DNA of 64,000 bases, taken from contig NC_135243.1 of the NCBI RefSeq assembly GCF_947623445.1, positions 3,660,501-3,724,500 on the forward strand, in the 5' to 3' direction. The translations under genes and the position numbers were made by a program. Shown here one piece after another: positions 34,003 to 56,343 of the stretch; the stretch's first letter is position 1; every line of letters starts with the position of its first letter. The notes under the pieces were generated by a model. That model ran no database searches. It worked only from the letters and a program-made list of their open reading frames with translations, and was not told where the DNA came from. The stretch is from Clavelina lepadiformis (lineage: Eukaryota; Chordata; Ascidiacea; Aplousobranchia; Clavelinidae).

Positions 34003-37000
34003 TTATAGCTGAAACATGAGTTCTGATTCTGGCGTGCGGACGATTCTGTTCTTCTGCTTTTTGAGGCTCTCTTGAGAATCGACCGACGATATAAGCGTGT
34101 TGATGTCGCTTTGGGCGTCTTCGTCGCGCAAACGAATGTTGAACCTTAAAAAATAATGTTTTCGTTATTCCTCTGCGTGATAAGACGATTTTCAGTGAAA
34201 CTACGGTGTTCGTAACGATTGTACATACACAGCATAGCGGGAAACTTGCGATATTTTGCTAAAACATTGCCACGGCCAAGTGGGTGTAATACCATACAAA
34301 GGAAATCAACATATCCTCATATACAGTTTATAACAGCGGCGCCATATGATCAAAGCCTATATGAGACCAGCCTACACCCACTGTAGTAGTTCTGTTACTT
34401 TGTATATTATGCGCTTAAATTATCCGGGATATAGCTGCATCCTCTGTGACGACCGAACGTCACGCGTACGTCTATCGCTGAATAAATTAAACGGGAAGGA
34501 AACGGTGTGTAGAATGGATGCAATGACTAACCGTCAGCTGGTGAGCTGCTACTGCTCGCGTGTACAAGTGCACATGAATCTGTACTAGTATTGCATTTTA
34601 TAAGTAACTCAACCCTCGCCCGTTATTCACGAAGTCAGCGTTTCAACTGCTGCCTTAGTTAAATCATAGGTATAGCAAATTATACACGCCCTGTACTAAC
34701 GGACTTTGTGTTTGAGAAAACAAACATGGCATGAGACCATAGTGAGACGCACATAACGCGCCAATTGGTGAATATTTTAAGGTTAAGCCACAAACCTTCT
34801 GTTTTGTCTCTTCCAGTGCACGTAGGCGACAATGAGCAGAACGCCTAAGACAATGACCCCCAACACCACTATTGCTCCAATCACCACGCCTGAGAGAATG
34901 CCTGCAAGAGAAAAATCCGGATTTTAAAAAATGCAACTTGCGCTTTTGTTGCAATTGCATGAAGCCGACATAAGGCCTCATCAATATCTTTATAATTCAT
35001 ATAACCAAATTTTTAATTTTTTGTGGGTTTAATAATTGGGATGCACTGATTCGAAAATTAACCAAGAGCGATTAATCATTTATCAGTAGTTTTACTTGAA
35101 TAATTACATTGGTAGGTGTATGAGTTCTTATAGGATTAATGAATTAATTATCTTAAAAGACATCCGCTAAATATCTTATGGCACAAAGCTTGCAAGGGAC
35201 TCCTTCGACAGTGCTTAACAAATGATAAAAGATGAATGAACGAATATATGAATGAAGGCTGAACTCAATAGAAAATTATTGAGTTATGTCATTGCAAGTT
35301 ACATTCGAGTTTAGTTTGTAATTCGAGAATTTGAAATTATCACCGAATTTAAGATGCGCAAAGATTTCCTTCAATTGGACAATAAACGTTTCAATATCAT
35401 ACCATACTAATTAATCGGTGCAACCCAATTTATCAGATTTTGTAAAAATTAAAATTTGTCACACACCTGGATTTTGTGAAATAGTATCATTGCCAGCAGT
35501 TGTGCTTGAATCACCATCTTTCTCATTGTCTTCGTTCTCATTGTTATCAACAACCCCGACTGCAGTTGAAACAATTCTATAAAATAGAAATCATATAATT
35601 TTGGAAAATGTTTCCACGTTAAGAGCAGAAGAAATATTTAAGATGAAACCAGAGAATTTATTTCACACAACTTGGATGCATGTAAGCTTCAAGTTTCACC
35701 AAAAACACAATTGTCACAATATATTTCGTGTACTAGCATCAGGCTTATTCAAGAGGTAACAAACTAGCTGAAAGTAAGAAAACGATACAATGAGAATACG
35801 AATATGCCATACTAATAAATACACTTACTTTGACGACAACCTAGTTGAACTCTTTGTGTTAAAAGTAGAAGTGGTGGTGGTGGTTTTGGTGCTAGTGGTG
35901 GTGGTGGTGGTAGTAGTCTTCGATGAGGAATCCGTCTTTACCGGTGGTGCATTGGTTGTTGATGGCAACGGTGAGTTGCTTTTGATTTCAAAAAATGCAC
36001 GGAAACCACGTTTTTCATCCGTTGCATATGACGTTCTCATGTTTATGACAATGACTGAACCTGCAAAAGAATCATTTTTAGTTGGAGCTGTACGTCAAGG
36101 TGAAAGGATTGCAAATACTATCATAAATGGGAAAACGTCTAGATTAACAAACATAAATGTTTGTAAACTGACACAAAATTATTTTACCTGTGGATAATAA
36201 TTTCCTTTTTACAAGTCTGTTATCTTCAAGATCACATGCGCTCTCATAGATTTTGTTTGCGTCCATATTACTTCCATCATAGATGGTGACATTGTTTTTG
36301 GCGCAGCGAGAGCTGACAAACTCAAAAGCAAGCTCAAGAAACTGAAAAGAAATCCTGTCATCTTCTGATGAACCTCTTACGGTCCACGTGCAGTTGAGAT
36401 TGCCATCGTAGCCTTGTGGGTATCCAGGCGATTGTATTGTACAAAATTGGCTGTTTTCAATTATTCCTCCGCACAGGTTTTCAATGCACTGTGCTCCACC
36501 TTCTGCTAAATTATATTTTATGTCAGATTCCAACAACATCATGTAAAACACATCACACATGCAGTACTAGTATATAAGCTACATAACCAACTCAAGGAAA
36601 CAATTGCTTAATTATGATTTTTAAAGTGAAATACAAAGAACCTCAAGCTAAGTCAAAAGAATGTTAAAATCAAATATTACAGAAACATTCACTACTAGTG
36701 CTACTCATATAACGAGGTAGTCTATACAATGGCTTATACATTATATATGATGGGGTGACAGCAGTTACATACATTCTTATAAGAGCCATATGCCCAAGAT
36801 TGAAAAGATTATGTTTTGAGTAGAAAACTATCCTGTGGAAAGACTTTTAGTAACGATCAGATTTTAAAACCACCGTACAGTTTGGAAATTTTCAATCAAG
36901 CGTACACGCTACTTACAATAGCCTGTAAACACAAATATGTTGAAACTACGTATGTACTTGTTGACTTACCTGTGCTTGATTTAAACTCGTATGTTGCTCT

Positions 37001-37939
37001 GAATCCTCTGCCACCATTGGAGCCATAATCAGAAATAAAAGAAATCTTCATAAAACGGCCTGAACTGGTCGCTACTTCAGGAATCTTTTGACCACATAAC
37101 ACACCCCCAAGAACTGGGCTATTCTTATCCACTCCATCAAGGACTTGTACTGTGTCCAAATCGCAATCTCCATCAAAATCTTCAACATCGAAATCGTGGA
37201 AAGTAAGTTGGATGATCTTTCCTTCAGGTGCTTCAATAACCCATTGGCAGGTCAAATCATATTTGTATTTGGAAGGGTAATTTGGGGTGCTTATTTCACC
37301 ATTGGAAGCAGTTAAACGTCCACCGCATGTCTGTAATAATTCAATTATACTGTTTAATTTTTGCCATTCACTGCGGGAAGCGAAAAATAAGGTCTTAACC
37401 TTGTCATAGCCAAACAAAACAAGAAATGGGCGCCCACAAAACAATCATTAAACTTGAAATGTGTGAGGTGCTAACTACAACATTGCTACAGTGATGGAAG
37501 GTAAGTACGGCCACCAAACCCTCAAAATTATATACTATAAATAACTATGATCTTTAACAGACAATGTACATTCTACTGTAGCATGGTACGGGCGAACTTG
37601 GTGGTGGTGGTACCGTACATGTTAAACAAATTGAAAAATAGAGCCTAAATGTCGGAAATTTTACAGATACTAGATGCATAGGCCGAGCGCTCACAACACG
37701 AGATTTTCACTTATACAGTTTATGCATTTCGAAAACATACGATAACAAATGATAATCAGGTTTTTTATTTACAAGTAAACTAATCAAAAAGACATTAAGC
37801 CTAACACATTACTAGAGCATTTAAAGCTTTTTTTTTGCTCATAAACTCAGTATTTAAAGTGGCAAACACTTACCGTCGTCTGAGCAAATGTTTGCTGAAG
37901 TAGTGACAAAATCAAAAGTGTCTTAATTTCTATCATCAT
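34003..37939 (-). CDS. Two-CUB-domain single-pass membrane protein (7 exons, 443 aa)
   Basis: Exons, 5' to 3' on the minus strand: 37939-37874, 37330-36970, 36502-36188, 36060-35829, 35576-35467, 34901-34796, 34144-34003. Exon 1 encodes a signal peptide (MMIEIKTLLILSLLQQTFAQ). Then come CUB1 (about 23-142) with four Cys (TCGG, LTCQW, GDCDLD, VLCGQ) and acidic DFDGDCDLD residues that resemble a calcium-binding CUB site; CUB2 (about 150-265; LCGG, SPGYP, NCTW, YDG); a Thr/Ser-rich, probably O-glycosylated stalk (S/T/K runs, about 285-325); an acidic juxtamembrane part; one hydrophobic helix (about 364-387); then a positively charged stop-transfer HWKRQNRR and about 50 cytoplasmic residues without a known motif. 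CUB modules bind proteins or carbohydrate outside the cell (family knowledge). The ligand is unknown. Not neuropilin (no FV/MAM domains) and not NETO (no LDLa). No family name can be assigned. Confidence 0.9.
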
Positions 37940-50356: not shown

Positions 50357-53300
50357 CTAATTTGCTGGCATTAACACACTCGTACACGCATATATATTCA
50401 CAGTCACATGTGCATGGAGTTTGAACAATACCGAGTTATCAAACTGGTCCAATGTGTTCTGGATTTCATGTCTTTCAGACTCGTTTGCATTTCTATTTCT
50501 TCCCGTTCTTTTATCTTCGTGCGGGAAGCAATGAAACATCCTCAGATACTGGTCAATTTTCATGAAGAAGGAAGACGGTGGGATTGTTTGAAGTGTGTTG
50601 CGGCTGATGTCCAGAATTTGTACCTGGCCACGAAAGTATGAAGTAAAAAAGTAAAGTAAACATGAGAAAGTGGAAAGCAGAAAAGGGGATGTTGACGCGT
50701 GTTAATAAATGTTTATTGTTATTCAGCCAATTATTACTAGAATTTCAATCGAGATAAGTCATGGAAAAACGTATTGAATTTTGAGTTGTACAACTCTAAA
50801 ATGTAAGTAAGTCAAGTGACATCGTTAAACAACTTCACAATACTGTAAAGGCAATTTCATCATTTAGTTATCAATATTTTCTAGAGTTACAAATTAACTA
50901 AAAATATCTGTGAAAATATATATTCCTTCCTTATACTGTAATACTGACAAAGTATTCTGGCTAATAAGTATACAGTAGATATAGGAAATATTTAAAAAGC
51001 TTTAGATTTCAAGGAAAACGACGAGAAAGGAAACAAGCAGGCAAACCTTTCCTGGCATTTCTGTAATTGCTGAAATTATCTTTTCAATATCACCGGGAGT
51101 TGAGAAGCAACCTTCCAGATCAAGCCTCTTGATCACTTTATTCTGTTTCCTTAAAACCTCGCACAAGAGAGTTGTGTGAAAAGAGTTTGACGGCGACTGC
51201 CAGAGATGAAGTTCATGCGGGAATAGTTCAACCGCTTTTTGTGTGAGACGCTCATCCGCGCACTCACTTATTTCAAACAAACGCAAAATGTATTTGCGTC
51301 TGTTGTCATCTATGTAAAAATAGTAGCGGCTTACACCAGATTGCTTATACCAGTCGGTTTTATACGGTACTTGTAGTGCAGTGAAGCTACCTTTGTTCCA
51401 TTCATCGTATGTCAACGGCGAGAAACGAGCCAGTTGTAACTCGAAAGCTTTGGTCAAAATTATTCTTTTCTCTGCAGGATCTAGAAAACAACGAAAAGTT
51501 CAATTAATAGACATATTTTTAGACGTCACCGTGTATAGTTGAAGAGTGTTGAAGAGTTGAAACTAAAAGCACAATTTGTACTTGACCACAGAATTTAACG
51601 TAATTGGCTTGCACAGTTTTCCCAAATAAACATAAGTACAGTAGGTAGGCTAATGCAGAAAAGTAGCAAACCGCAGTACAGCCTTTCTTGAAACATCTCT
51701 ATTGATTCTAAACGCAGAGCATACTTCGATTACGTTTTTTTTTCTTTTTTCGGGTCGTAAATATGTACGTTTCTGCACACAACTATTTTTACTACGCTAA
51801 ACATTCCAGCAGCCTGTACGTGGCGCTATTAATTTACTTGTACGAAAAATATGCCGCTTAATAAGATGCTAAATAACAAAATGAATGAAATACTCACCTA
51901 CATGTTGAACCATTGATGGTGACTGCCCTGCCGAGGTGGACACAGTATGACTAAACCTTTGTTCATAAATACAATTACTGACAAAGATCAAATTAAACTT
52001 GGACTAAGTTTAATAATATTGCATATGGTGGCAGTGATACCTGCTGCATCCGGCCTGTGAGTGCACTGGTAAATCGTGGTCTAAAACAAATAAGAAAATC
52101 TATTAGCTACGATATTTCATACATTATTTCAAGAAACTACTTTTACTCAATAGCTTGTGGTTAAGTCTTTTAGGTCAGTCTTATGCTTTATTGCCACATT
52201 TTCACTAGCTTACTAGCAACGTTGTTACAGACCGAAGTTTTACAGAATAATTAAAACAAGACTTCAAAACATCCTAAAAGCTTCGAGGTAAAAATTCTAA
52301 GACTATAATAAAAAGAAAAATTTACCACGCATCACATCCATCAACAACCCAGAAAGAAATACTCGCACGACAGACCACTTGTCATCAAAGAACATTTGCC
52401 CTGTGACGAAGCGCTGAAATTCATCTAATGGCATGTGATTGATGATCCAAAGTGCTGTGAAGTATTCCTGATAGGACTGATGAGCGAAGAAGAACTTGGT
52501 GTCGTGTTCAAAGACTTTGCTTGTGACACCACAATGAGAATGAAGACAGACGATTATATCCTGGGTTTCGTTTGGATCCAGTCCTTGCGCTCGCATCTCA
52601 GCTGGTGTGATTACTACTGTAGACTTTGCACTGGCGTTGTAGGCCAAGATGCTCAATTGCTCAGTAAGCAGCGTGATGTCATGACTTGTGTTCTCACTGT
52701 GCTGTAAATGCATAAATACAGTCGCAAAAGCCCTAGTGGCGCTGGTAATTTCTCCGATACTGTCGGTAGGATTTAGTAAAGCGATAATTACTAGTTGTAG
52801 TAACAATGGATTGAAACAAAGACGAAATACAGGAAGGTCTCTTTCGTATAATTTATTCCATAACTCATTGGCCTTAGCACCAGCATAGAAATGAAATAAC
52901 TTCTTCATTCCCTCATGAGGGAGATCCCCTACAATGATAGTGGTATCAGGGCGGAGTGATTTCGGAAGCGTAACGACGCTATGAGGTCGGGAAGTGAACA
53001 CGATCAAAGAGTCTGGAAGAAAATGCCCGGTGGAAAGATTGGCGATAAGATCCTGAATTGGTCTAGGAGTATCATAATCTTCCATGGTTGGATGTTCCTT
53101 CAGTGTCCATCCCGCTTGGTCAAGCCCGTCAAAGATAAACAGACATTTTTTCTGATTATTCTTAATCCACTTGAAGGCTTGTTCGTGTGTTTTGCGATTT
53201 ACATTTGGGAAGCGTTTTTCTAGTAATAGTTGCTGCAGTGTTAAATCTTTCTGGTAATTCATATCCATAAGTTTGTAATGGAAACACTTGTAGTCTTCAT

Positions 53301-56300
53301 TTCTTGCTAATCTTTTGGAGAAGGTAGTTTTGCCGGAGCCAGGGTAACCAATTACACCTATAACACGTCTACCACTTCTTATGATGTCTCTGAACTGAAT
53401 TCTACTCTCATGTCGAATATCTTTCATCTCTTCAATAGAAGGTCTAAACGTCTCTTCTTTTGGGAGCGCTCCGCCTTGGTAAAATGACACTTTCGTGTAG
53501 CTAGGATGGACGATGGGGATATTCTTTGAAACCGGCATACCGCCTTGAAGACGAATGTCATCTTCTAGATATCGTTTTTGTTCCATCATTACTTTTTCAA
53601 TCGCAGTTTTTTCTACGAATAATTTTTTATTTGCTTAAAATGTTTTTTTTATACAATAAAATTTGTAAAAATTGTTTTTAACTGACTACTTTACACACAA
53701 ATGTTTCCATTCGCGATAGATTAGCTTCAAAAGATATTTTCAACATATCTAAAAAAATTTCTTTACCTTTACTCTTTGGTAACTTTCTTCCTAAAAATTG
53801 TACAAAAAGAGATTAATGAGAATCACCATATACTGTATTTTATGAGTAAGTTATTAAAGTGCGTCCGTATACTTTTGTAACTTGCACTTTATATAAGATA
53901 ATGTAAGGCAATAAATAGCTGGTTTAATCGATTGTAAATTTTGCTAAACAAGTTAAAACAAAGTTTTAAACCAAAAAGTTAATTTTGTTTACACATATAT
54001 AGTTATTCACTTATTTATTAGTATGTTTGTTATAAGCATAAGACAAAAGTTTGTAAACATTTGCCAAAATTTGCACCCTAAGTTATAAAACGTTGCGTTT
54101 GTTTTAGACGAAAAGCTTACTCATATTTTGTAGAAAGGATGTTTTCCGATACGTTGATCCAAGCGAACTTGTTTCTAAATTCATCTTGGGGTTTGCGTCT
54201 AAAGCCCGAAAGAAAAAAGGTCACAAATGACTGGAATAAACATTATGTTTGTTTCAACTTTCCAACGCTTTTTTTCGCTCATCCGCTTTCACTGTTACTT
54301 GCTGCTGATATGTTATTTTACTGCAAGATTAGCTTATTTTTTCCGGTTACTTTATGTTTTAACTTTGCAAAAAAAACTTTAAAACTTTAACCAAACTTTA
54401 TGTCAAGAAACTGATGATGCCTGTTTTCATCGAAAAATATATTGAAATTGTTTGTCCACTGATTCAGAATTTATTCTTAAATTAAAAATTAGGCTTAAAA
54501 TTAAATTAAGTCGAGATTTAGAAAGCGATAACATTTTGCAAAATTTCATTTAAACAGAACTGAGGAGATTTCATACAATTGCTCTGCTACAAGTTTATTG
54601 TATTCCTCACTATCGTTGTTCTTACCTGATATCACTACGTCAGGTTCTCCCCTTGTTGTAAATTTGGACGAGTGGTTGTGCGCTTGCCCGTATTGGTCTG
54701 TTTAAACAATTACAAGCAATACAAGCTTAAATCACAGGTAAAACGTTACTGTAGGGCAAGGGTGTACATATTTTATTTATCACAACAAAAGCAGTGGACT
54801 GGTATTCTTTCCATCAACAACGAATTAAAAATTGAAAACCACCTGGACGGGAGAAAGCATTTGAAGATGTGCTTGATGTGCTGCTGCCTGCTTCATTTAT
54901 AGCAGAAGATGAGAATGGCTCTTTGGGATGGGTTAACCCCGAATTATCTGGGATGAAGCGTGGGGAAATTACATATATAAATATGACGTACGATATCAAG
55001 CTTAATGTAGACTTGTAACCTAAACTGCGGGTACCTGGGACAAACGCTCTAAATGGCCTTGCGGTAAGATCATCAACTGGGTCACCACCAGCAAGAACTA
55101 AATTTGAAAATATGAATACAGTTTACTTTACAATTTTTTTCATACTACTGGTGTGACCGTTTCAATTACCAATATTCTATTCAACTTTGGTCTAATATAA
55201 CATACCGTTACCAGCCGACGTAGTTGCATGATTTACAGCTTCAGATTCGTTCATGGTAGGTAAGGCAGGGGCTTGTGGTGCAGTACACCAACTTGATTCA
55301 CTTAGTTTCTTTGGTTGTGTAACATCGGATGGATCTATAAAAAACGAAACTATTGCAGTGAAGGTCACGCCAAAAGGTATATCAGTAGTAGCCAGTAAAG
55401 TCAAAAGCAAACCCGTTGTAGTAGCAGTTTGACTTCCTCTTGTGCTCCTTTGCCATGAGGGCGAGGATAAAAAACTTGACTCTGTTGATTCACCTATAGT
55501 CAAAAAACATAATCTGCCGATTATATGTTCTACATAATAACGTTGCTGTTAATTGTATAAAATTAATTGTGACGCTACGTGTATATAGTCTGTAAAAGCT
55601 ATTACACTGTCCACTCTATACATTCTGGAATCTATACTTATCTTCTTTTCAGCAAATGTATAAAAAATAACAAATCTTTAACATATTATGCTCTTAAAAA
55701 TAAAGTATGAGAAATCATTTTGCCACCTCGTTGACGATAAGATCTTGCATTGGTAACTGGAATGTCAACCTTGGAATTCATGATTGTGGCGTCATGTTGT
55801 TGCCTGTTGTCATGATACTGCCTTTGGTCATGATGATGAATTACAGGAGCATAATGTATGCGAATCGGACCTAGGTAAAAATTTGAATTCACGCACCTAC
55901 CGCAAGCAACATTATTCGATTTGTTCAATATAAGCCAACTGTACATACCAGTAGCAATTTCAGCCATTCTAGTCGTAAGTTCTACGAAGCTTTGATCAAC
56001 TCTATTGACAGCAAGTGGCGAAGATTCAGTACGTTCCGTAACGTACATTACCTGGTCCATACTAGCAGCGTCTTGAAGTGGTACAGAGTCTGAAACAATC
56101 CAAATCTTTTAACAGACGGAGGCAGATGTTCGACTATAAGAATTGTTGGCTGATTGTTGAGGTTACTTTGCAAATTTTTTCAAACTTACCAGAGGGTCTT
56201 CTTCGTTCATGTTGCAGTGGAAGGTCATGTGATGTACCCGGCTGTTCATCACCTTCACCTGAAGAACTCTCTTCAGTGTCTTGGTAATGCTGTACGAGAT

Positions 56301-56343
56301 TGATTTCGTTTTCAGGCCCCTTTTCGGCCTCAGATAACGACAT
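50357..56343 (-). CDS. NACHT-LRR (NLR-like) protein with Ser/Thr-rich N-terminus (14 exons, 1006 aa)
   Basis: Exons, 5' to 3' on the minus strand: 56343-56190, 56089-55949, 55870-55727, 55493-55413, 55334-55206, 55097-55035, 54947-54843, 54697-54626, 53790-53767, 53612-52326, 52080-52041, 51977-51898, 51480-51047, 50623-50357. The big exon encodes a NACHT NTPase: Walker A GYPGSGKTT (393-401), Walker B LFIFDGLD (465-469), sensor FTSRP, and a C-terminal winged-helix/NLR motif FFAHQSYQEYFTALW. The last two exons carry a short LRR tail (IKRLDLEGC, then VQILDISRNTLQTIPPSSFF). The first 304 residues are acidic/Ser/Thr-rich with a His/Gln patch (HHHDQRQYHDNRQQHD) and show no recognisable CARD, PYD, death or DED fold. 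NLRs sense intracellular danger and oligomerise through NACHT (family knowledge). Every intron from exon 1 to exon 12 is phase 1. The starting ATG (56343) is the first in its frame; upstream sequence is open without ATG. The ligand is unknown. Confidence 0.88.

What the first reader, a model, noticed from the sequence alone, without database searches (positions are those of the whole stretch)
50357..56343. NACHT-LRR protein whose N-terminus is a chain of phase 1-1 Ser/Thr-rich exons
Exons 2-9 (24 to 144 nt) all begin and end in phase 1, so any can be skipped or duplicated without a frameshift. They encode low-complexity Ser/Thr/Pro and His/Gln-rich segments instead of a death-fold effector domain. 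The LRR region is very short, about one or two repeats. This suggests an NLR with a splicing-variable, possibly non-canonical effector region.
Basis: partly seen in the sequence, partly recalled or inferred. Interest (0 to 1): 0.72.

Follow-up and report, generated by a model that had tools for sequence, protein, structure and literature searches.

The report
Modular front end of ascidian NLR
This sea-squirt immune receptor gene begins with a string of small interchangeable exons, and in sister genes of a nearby array a ready-made TIR signalling cassette is present in or absent from that string, so the family shows how a receptor can swap its output domain.

Summary
A minus-strand, 14-exon model (56343-50357, 1006 aa) has NACHT in exon 10 and nine exons before it; all nine introns between them and to NACHT lie in phase 1. 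No effector domain is found in residues 1-304. The genome matches Clavelina lepadiformis, chromosome 4. An array of NLR paralogues lies 207 kb away. In 20 fetched paralogues exons 1, 2, 3 recur in 20, exon 5 in 15, exon 7 in 13; 5 and 7 are copies of one repeat.

TIR presence changes at least 8 times on a 23-row NACHT tree, and near-identical head-plus-TIR blocks sit on different NACHT clades. So the string is a platform for module exchange; the window gene is a TIR-less member. Window exons 4, 6, 8, 9 have no homologue. Splicing variation is untested. Closest known: zebrafish NLR-B30.2 genes.

The parts
56190..56343 (-). exon 1, acidic Ser/Glu-rich head, start codon; phase 0-1
   Evidence: homologues in 20 of 20 fetched array loci and L043
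55949..56089 (-). exon 2, phase 1-1
   Evidence: array exon kept 17/19
55727..55870 (-). exon 3, phase 1-1, conserved motif GPIRIHYAPVIHHHDQRQYHDNR
   Evidence: dN/dS 0.64
55413..55493 (-). exon 4 (putative), phase 1-1, Ser/Thr-rich, weak donor GTTTGC
   Evidence: no similarity to array exon 4
55206..55334 (-). exon 5, phase 1-1, repeat unit with DVTQPK
   Evidence: similar to array exons 5 and 7
55035..55097 (-). exon 6 (putative), phase 1-1
   Evidence: within chance expectation; no homologue
54843..54947 (-). exon 7, phase 1-1, repeat unit with GLTHPK
   Evidence: similar to array exons 7 and 5
54626..54697 (-). exon 8 (putative), phase 1-1, strong donor
   Evidence: no homologue
53767..53790 (-). 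exon 9 (putative), 24 nt, phase 1-1
   Evidence: no homologue
52326..53633 (-). exon 10, NACHT with GYPGSGKTT; phase 1-1
   Evidence: PF05729 E 3.7e-16; NLRP1/NLRP3 chains
52041..52080 (-). exon 11, phase 1-2
   Evidence: same phase pair after NACHT in L035
51898..51956 (-). exon 12, Ser-rich, phase 2-1
   Evidence: phase 2-1 counterpart in L035
51047..51480 (-). exon 13, pre-LRR/LRR exon, phase 1-0
   Evidence: homologues in the C4 array, on C7, C9 and C5
50357..50623 (-). exon 14, last LRR and C-terminus, stop
   Evidence: conserved terminal exon

Best explanation
The locus is a TIR-less member of an ascidian NACHT-LRR family whose genes are built, in front of NACHT, from symmetric phase 1-1 modules. 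Shown by sequence: (1) a conserved head (exons 1-3) and a copy-variable, mostly disorder-like string (exons 4-7, where 5 and 7 are one repeat unit); (2) in about half of the paralogues a TIR domain on three exons (1-0, 0-1, 1-1), symmetric as a whole; (3) whole modules present or absent between paralogues with the breakpoints examined lying in phase 1 introns, so junctions stay in frame; (4) near-identical head-plus-TIR blocks on different NACHT clades. Inferred: on sensing through the short LRR end, NACHT oligomerises; in TIR-bearing siblings this brings TIRs together to act as an NAD-consuming enzyme or scaffold, while the window protein, lacking TIR, offers only its head motif and flexible string and most likely acts as a helper or dampener that co-assembles with TIR-bearing siblings, or recruits a partner through exon 3. 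The functional part is about 35% likely as stated; the architectural part about 85%.
For: Exon map of 20 paralogues: TIR in 10/20; exons 4-7 all absent in 4/20; exon 7 twice in 2/20; exon 5 twice in 1/20; the H exon present without TIR in L019. Phase 1-1 kept in most aligned paralogues. 27 of 50 minus-strand C4 NACHT hits have TIR_2 within 14 kb upstream. At least 8 TIR changes on a 23-row NACHT tree. Present/absent blocks with intronic ends: L029/L019 (TIR block), L033/L021 (exons 4-7), L028/L020 (TIR plus one exon-7 copy). L033 and L028 share exon 1 to TIR at 95.6% DNA over 4.3 kb but the NACHT exon at 63%. Head and NACHT histories disagree: exon 3 is nearer to L043 (58-72%) than to L045 (30-43%, or no match) in 20 of 20 array loci, while NACHT is nearer to L045 (47-53%) than to L043 (31-36%) in the 12 of 20 whose NACHT frame the script caught; the window gene shows the same (exon 3 52 against 42%, NACHT 32 against 50%). 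dN/dS: NACHT 0.29, TIR 0.35-0.39, exon 3 0.64, exons 2, 4, 6 1.3-1.4. TIR_2 E 5.1e-24 on the joined L033 cassette; the alignment to RPS4 places its CKRE glutamate on the RPS4 CVRE glutamate (that this residue is catalytic is recalled).
Against: No transcript was seen: that string, TIR and NACHT share one mRNA rests on homology and phase. Window exons 4, 6, 8, 9 have no homologues. The third TIR exon has a weak acceptor in its 1-1 model; a better-scoring 0-1 model is kept in only 4/9. Solved-structure matches of the TIR are weak (best 3h16 E 0.0057; RPS4 0.17-0.18; SARM1 0.21-0.74). Nothing tests co-assembly or NADase activity. Mosaics can arise by gene conversion without functional meaning. 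In the tree 7 of 19 inner branches are drawn open, the window and L043 branches are long, rows were not trimmed alike, and the count of 8 is for that one tree.
Confidence: 0.72

Rival explanations
1. One reading: the string itself is a splicing-variable, non-canonical effector region of a single gene, with isoforms made by exon skipping.
For: All string exons are symmetric, so any skip keeps frame; genomic loss and duplication of such exons is seen between paralogues.
Against: No RNA data; array exons 2, 4, 6 evolve near or above neutral (dN/dS 1.3-1.4), which suits a spacer or fast-evolving linker better than a defined effector; TIR is the recurrent effector.
Confidence: 0.3
2. Two genes: exons 1-8 form a small upstream gene that ends by reading on past the exon 8 donor, and NACHT belongs to a second gene.
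For: Past exon 8 the frame stays open for 26 codons (GKNNDSEEYNKLVAEQLYEISSVLFK) to a stop; an AATAAA lies about 70 nt further, found by eye.
Against: The NACHT exon starts in phase 1 behind an acceptor in window and array, so something must precede it; an exon-1 hit lies upstream of NACHT in 43 of 50 cases, window included.
Confidence: 0.1
3. Neutral debris: the window gene and much of the array are decaying copies, and the string is unconstrained intron-like sequence.
For: dN/dS near 1 for several string exons; L048 holds an orphan head with none of the searched modules in the 6.4 kb after it, and L047 TIR and H exons of a head-bearing unit with no NACHT in the next 4 kb.
Against: Open frame of 1006 codons; array NACHT dN/dS 0.29, TIR 0.35-0.39, exon 3 0.64; splice sites and frame kept in most paralogues.
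Confidence: 0.1

Closest known systems
Zebrafish NLR-B30.2 (FISNA) family, PMC4852459 (passages and section 2.2 read)
   Same: Large NLR family; NACHT on one large exon; N-terminal peptides of about 30 aa repeated, each on its own exon; effector (death fold) only in some groups; N-terminal types shuffled between NACHT groups.
   Different: No FISNA or B30.2 match here; the optional effector is TIR on three exons instead of a death fold. Repeat sequences were not compared, and the word 'phase' does not occur in the paper's held text.
Amphioxus TIR-NACHT proteins, PMC2575513 (passages read)
   Same: TIR and NACHT in one predicted protein of a non-vertebrate chordate.
   Different: No head-and-string architecture, cassette exchange or mixed array in the passages seen.
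Ascidian NLRC as surveyed in PMC11508797 (passages read)
   Same: Ascidian NACHT-LRR proteins reported without CARD or N-terminal domain, as in the window gene.
   Different: Here many relatives in the same array have TIR exons upstream of NACHT, so that statement does not cover this family.
Exon shuffling of modules in Metazoa, PMC8001218 (search listing only; class 1-1 modules recalled)
   Same: Symmetric phase 1 modules exchanged through introns.
   Different: Here the exchange is between tandem receptor paralogues and concerns an intracellular signalling domain.

Membership tests
Metazoan NLR (NACHT-LRR) | NACHT NTPase | tested here: met
   PF05729 E 3.7e-16, 59.9 bits over cut-off 26.7; NLRP1 chain E 1.8e-9, NLRP3 chains from 3.6e-8
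Metazoan NLR (NACHT-LRR) | C-terminal LRRs | tested here: inconclusive
   LRR_1 E 0.019, 15.4 bits under cut-off 20.6; exons conserved family-wide
Metazoan NLR (NACHT-LRR) | N-terminal death-fold effector | tested here: not met
   one sub-threshold, unrelated match (E 0.056) in 304 aa at E up to 10; by sequence only, no structure prediction was run
TIR-NACHT NLR | TIR upstream of NACHT | tested here: not met
   window gene: none; met in 10 of 20 fetched paralogues
Zebrafish-type NLR-B30.2 | FISNA and B30.2 domains | tested here: not met
   not among the Pfam matches of the NACHT exon (25 listed, E up to 1) or of the C-terminus
Zebrafish-type NLR-B30.2 | N-terminal peptide repeats on single exons | tested here: met
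   exons 5 and 7 are one repeat unit on single exons: works like it, is not a member
Class 1-1 shuffling modules | symmetric phase 1 borders and exchange in introns | tested here: met
RHIM amyloid motif | Pfam RHIM match | tested here: not met
   no RHIM match in exon 3 of L044-L046 at E up to 10; the genome search with PF12721 gave two sub-threshold hits elsewhere

The most novel reading that the evidence does not exclude
Exons 2-3 are an unrecognised NLR signalling head: a short helix-like segment plus a motif GPVxIxYAP..DxRQYxDxR that my searches found only in this array (a few units there lack a recognised NACHT), at C7 family loci and at two NLR genes at C4 19.4-19.6 Mb. In the deeper lineages (L044, L045, L046) exon 3 runs on into INIGDGQ / DLNLGSGS / DLNFGSGN, which by eye resembles the RHIM amyloid core. 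The head would then be an ancestral amyloid-like signalling end, with TIR an exchangeable second output, and the window gene a receptor that signals, or silences siblings, through the head alone.
Probability: 0.13. Interest if true: 0.85.

Novelty: new variant of a known kind. Interest (0 to 1): 0.62.

Why it matters
Ascidian NLRs have been described as lacking an N-terminal output domain (PMC11508797, passages). Here one array shows the output domain present or absent as an in-frame cassette within a single species, with close relatives on both sides of the change. That makes effector gain and loss in animal NLRs directly testable: closely related receptors differ by one TIR block. Five searches of the PMC library (listed 20 of 38, 4 of 4, 15 of 40, 0 of 0 and 12 of 19 papers) showed no title or abstract start describing this family; most texts were not read and the library lacks most subscription papers.

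Tried and rejected
RHIM membership of exon 3: no Pfam match, and no solved-structure match for the L045 peptide, the only one tried, at E up to 10; kept as a lead. A partner effector gene sharing exon 3 elsewhere: none at E up to 10 (single-protein searches whose first look is limited). Homology of window exons 4, 6, 8, 9: not found. Strict splice scans missed true exons and were replaced by paralogue-supported models. A first full-length join was out of frame by one base at exon 12, corrected. TIR remnants in the 10 TIR-less loci and the window: none at E up to 0.1 on the gene strand; one 14-residue opposite-strand match in L031 (E 0.081) to a query that turned out to be the wrong frame. Simple loop-out by recombination between the two exon-7 copies fits the flanks of L020 against L028, but informative sites inside the repeat are mixed, so direction and mechanism stay open. 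In one search three of six NACHT protein comparisons, and eight of 20 array loci, gave nothing because the script's Walker pattern did not fit them. dN/dS varies with the way of pooling: H 0.20 from L033 alone, 0.67 over all pairs; exon 4 1.8-3.5, 1.32. The head-versus-NACHT comparison used a typed composite array exon 3; one search repeats it with the loci's own letters and is the one cited.
Full report
Where it is. The window is C4:3660501-3724500 of a 209.06-Mb genome. C4 is 25,070,715 bases and C7 20,448,514; the published Clavelina lepadiformis assembly has 210.1 Mb, chromosome 4 of 25.07 Mb and chromosome 7 of 20.45 Mb (PMC10884593, passages). I take it to be that ascidian.

The gene. 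On the minus strand 14 exons from 56343 to 50357 give 1006 aa with one stop at the end. Exons 1-9 encode the 304 residues of the finding; exons 2-9 are symmetric phase 1-1. Exon 10 holds NACHT. By charge and hydropathy residues 1-304 lie on the disordered side, with hydrophobic residues 20% against 37% in the NACHT exon; exons 2 and 6 alone of the nine fall on the ordered side. Pfam finds no effector domain there at E up to 10, only one sub-threshold unrelated match.

Is it more than chance. Random order-1 sequence yields on average 0 to 0.15 candidates as good as each exon per 2.54 kb, except exon 6 (0.82). Better evidence is homology. A search of the genome with the 304 residues finds, outside the window, relatives of exons 1, 2 and 3 in an array at C4 0.3-3.5 Mb and exon 3 on C7 (E up to 10, the weaker ones convincing only by strand and place). 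I fetched 20 array loci, chosen for short head-to-NACHT distance. At E up to 0.01 all 20 have exons 1, 2, 3 in order; 15 have exons 4 and 5, 9 exon 6, 13 exon 7; L026 has of these only exon 7, placed after TIR; 4 have none of exons 4-7. The array exons of the string are best modelled as phase 1-1. For window exon 5 none of 400 shuffles reached its score with either array exon 5; for exon 7 none and 2 of 400; the cross pairs 5-7 and 7-5 gave 0 of 200. So 5 and 7 are one repeat unit, with the motif [DG][VLF]T[HQ]PK; window exons 4, 6, 8, 9 match nothing.

The missing effector. In 10 of the 20 loci three exons upstream of NACHT encode a TIR domain; joined from L033 they match TIR_2 at E 5.1e-24. 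Their phases are 1-0, 0-1, 1-1, kept in 9/9 aligned loci each, the third with a weak acceptor, so the block is symmetric. By position, 27 of 50 minus-strand NACHT hits at 0.3-3.72 Mb (window gene included) have TIR_2 within 14 kb upstream and 43 of 50 an exon-1 hit; the NACHT list is a lower bound. The window gene has no TIR.

Exchange. TIR-bearing and TIR-less genes are mixed in all three array NACHT clades; at least 8 changes on 23 rows. Pairs show clean blocks: L029 carries 1.9 kb with TIR that L019 lacks, while the neighbouring H exon is in both; L021 lacks 2.07 kb with exons 4-7 against L033, the aligned parts abutting; L020 has one exon 7 where L028 has two around the TIR block. L033 and L028 are 95.6% identical over 4.3 kb from exon 1 to TIR but 63% in the NACHT exon, whereas L033 and L021 are 95% in NACHT, 92% in the TIR part and 81% in exons 1-3. 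On a deeper scale exon 3 and NACHT disagree: exon 3 of all 20 array loci is nearer to L043 on C7 (58-72%) than to L045 at C4 19.59 Mb (30-43%, no match in 7), while NACHT, read in 12 of 20, is nearer to L045 (47-53%) than to L043 (31-36%); the window gene does the same. Exon 3 alignments are 22-42 residues long. L043 is a TIR-less homologue with exons 1, 2, 3, a weak exon-7-like unit, NACHT and the last two coding exons; L044, another C7 locus, has exon 3, TIR (59% to L033) and NACHT. So TIR is old in the family and its presence or absence recurs in two clusters. I infer loss in the window lineage but cannot exclude that it never had TIR.

Selection. dN/dS (rough Nei-Gojobori, pooled pairs, 9-20 rows): NACHT 0.29, TIR 0.35-0.39, exon 3 0.64, H 0.67, exon 7 0.73, exon 5 0.92, exons 2, 4, 6 1.3-1.4 with wide ranges; other pooling gives other values for H and exon 4. 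Exon 3 is constrained, exon 7 perhaps (0.61-0.98), the rest of the string is relaxed or diversifying.

Reading. The string is best seen as a platform of symmetric modules in which an output cassette can be placed or removed. The window gene shows the bare platform. Function is inference: the L033 TIR keeps a glutamate that aligns with RPS4, so NAD cleavage is plausible there; the window protein would work through its head motif or by co-assembly. Closest known design: zebrafish NLR-B30.2 genes, where N-terminal peptides of about 30 aa sit each on one exon and are shuffled between NACHT groups (PMC4852459). That precedent makes this a new variant of a known kind.

Noticed in passing
C9:12.6-14.4 Mb: About 32 copies each of the family's LRR exon and terminal exon lie on chromosome 9, yet the NACHT search (97 rows, a lower bound) listed none on C9; a NACHT too divergent for the model, or another architecture.
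   Followed up: no
L048 (C4:2201500-2208700) and L047 (C4:1587500-1593200): An orphan head (exons 1-3 with none of the searched modules in the 6.4 kb after it), and TIR and H exons of a unit with a head upstream but no NACHT in the next 4 kb: remnants or NACHT-free proteins.
   Followed up: partly
L023 3891-8107: About 4.2 kb of short tandem repeat (self-matches at shifts that are multiples of 8) between the exon 7 unit and NACHT.
   Followed up: no
L021, L034, L035 downstream of NACHT: A stretch is repeated about 950-970 bp apart; in L035 it holds a pair of Ser/Glu-rich exons with phases 1-2 and 2-1, so the C-terminal side is modular too.
   Followed up: partly
C4 0.3-3.7 Mb: 34 of 49 gaps between successive minus-strand NACHT hits are 35-70 kb, though the one gene measured end to end (L035/L042) spans about 12 kb; the content of the intervals was not read.
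   Followed up: no
window 36144-37444, minus strand: Two CUB-domain exons of another gene (PF00431 E 1.6e-11 and 1.8e-28).
   Followed up: no
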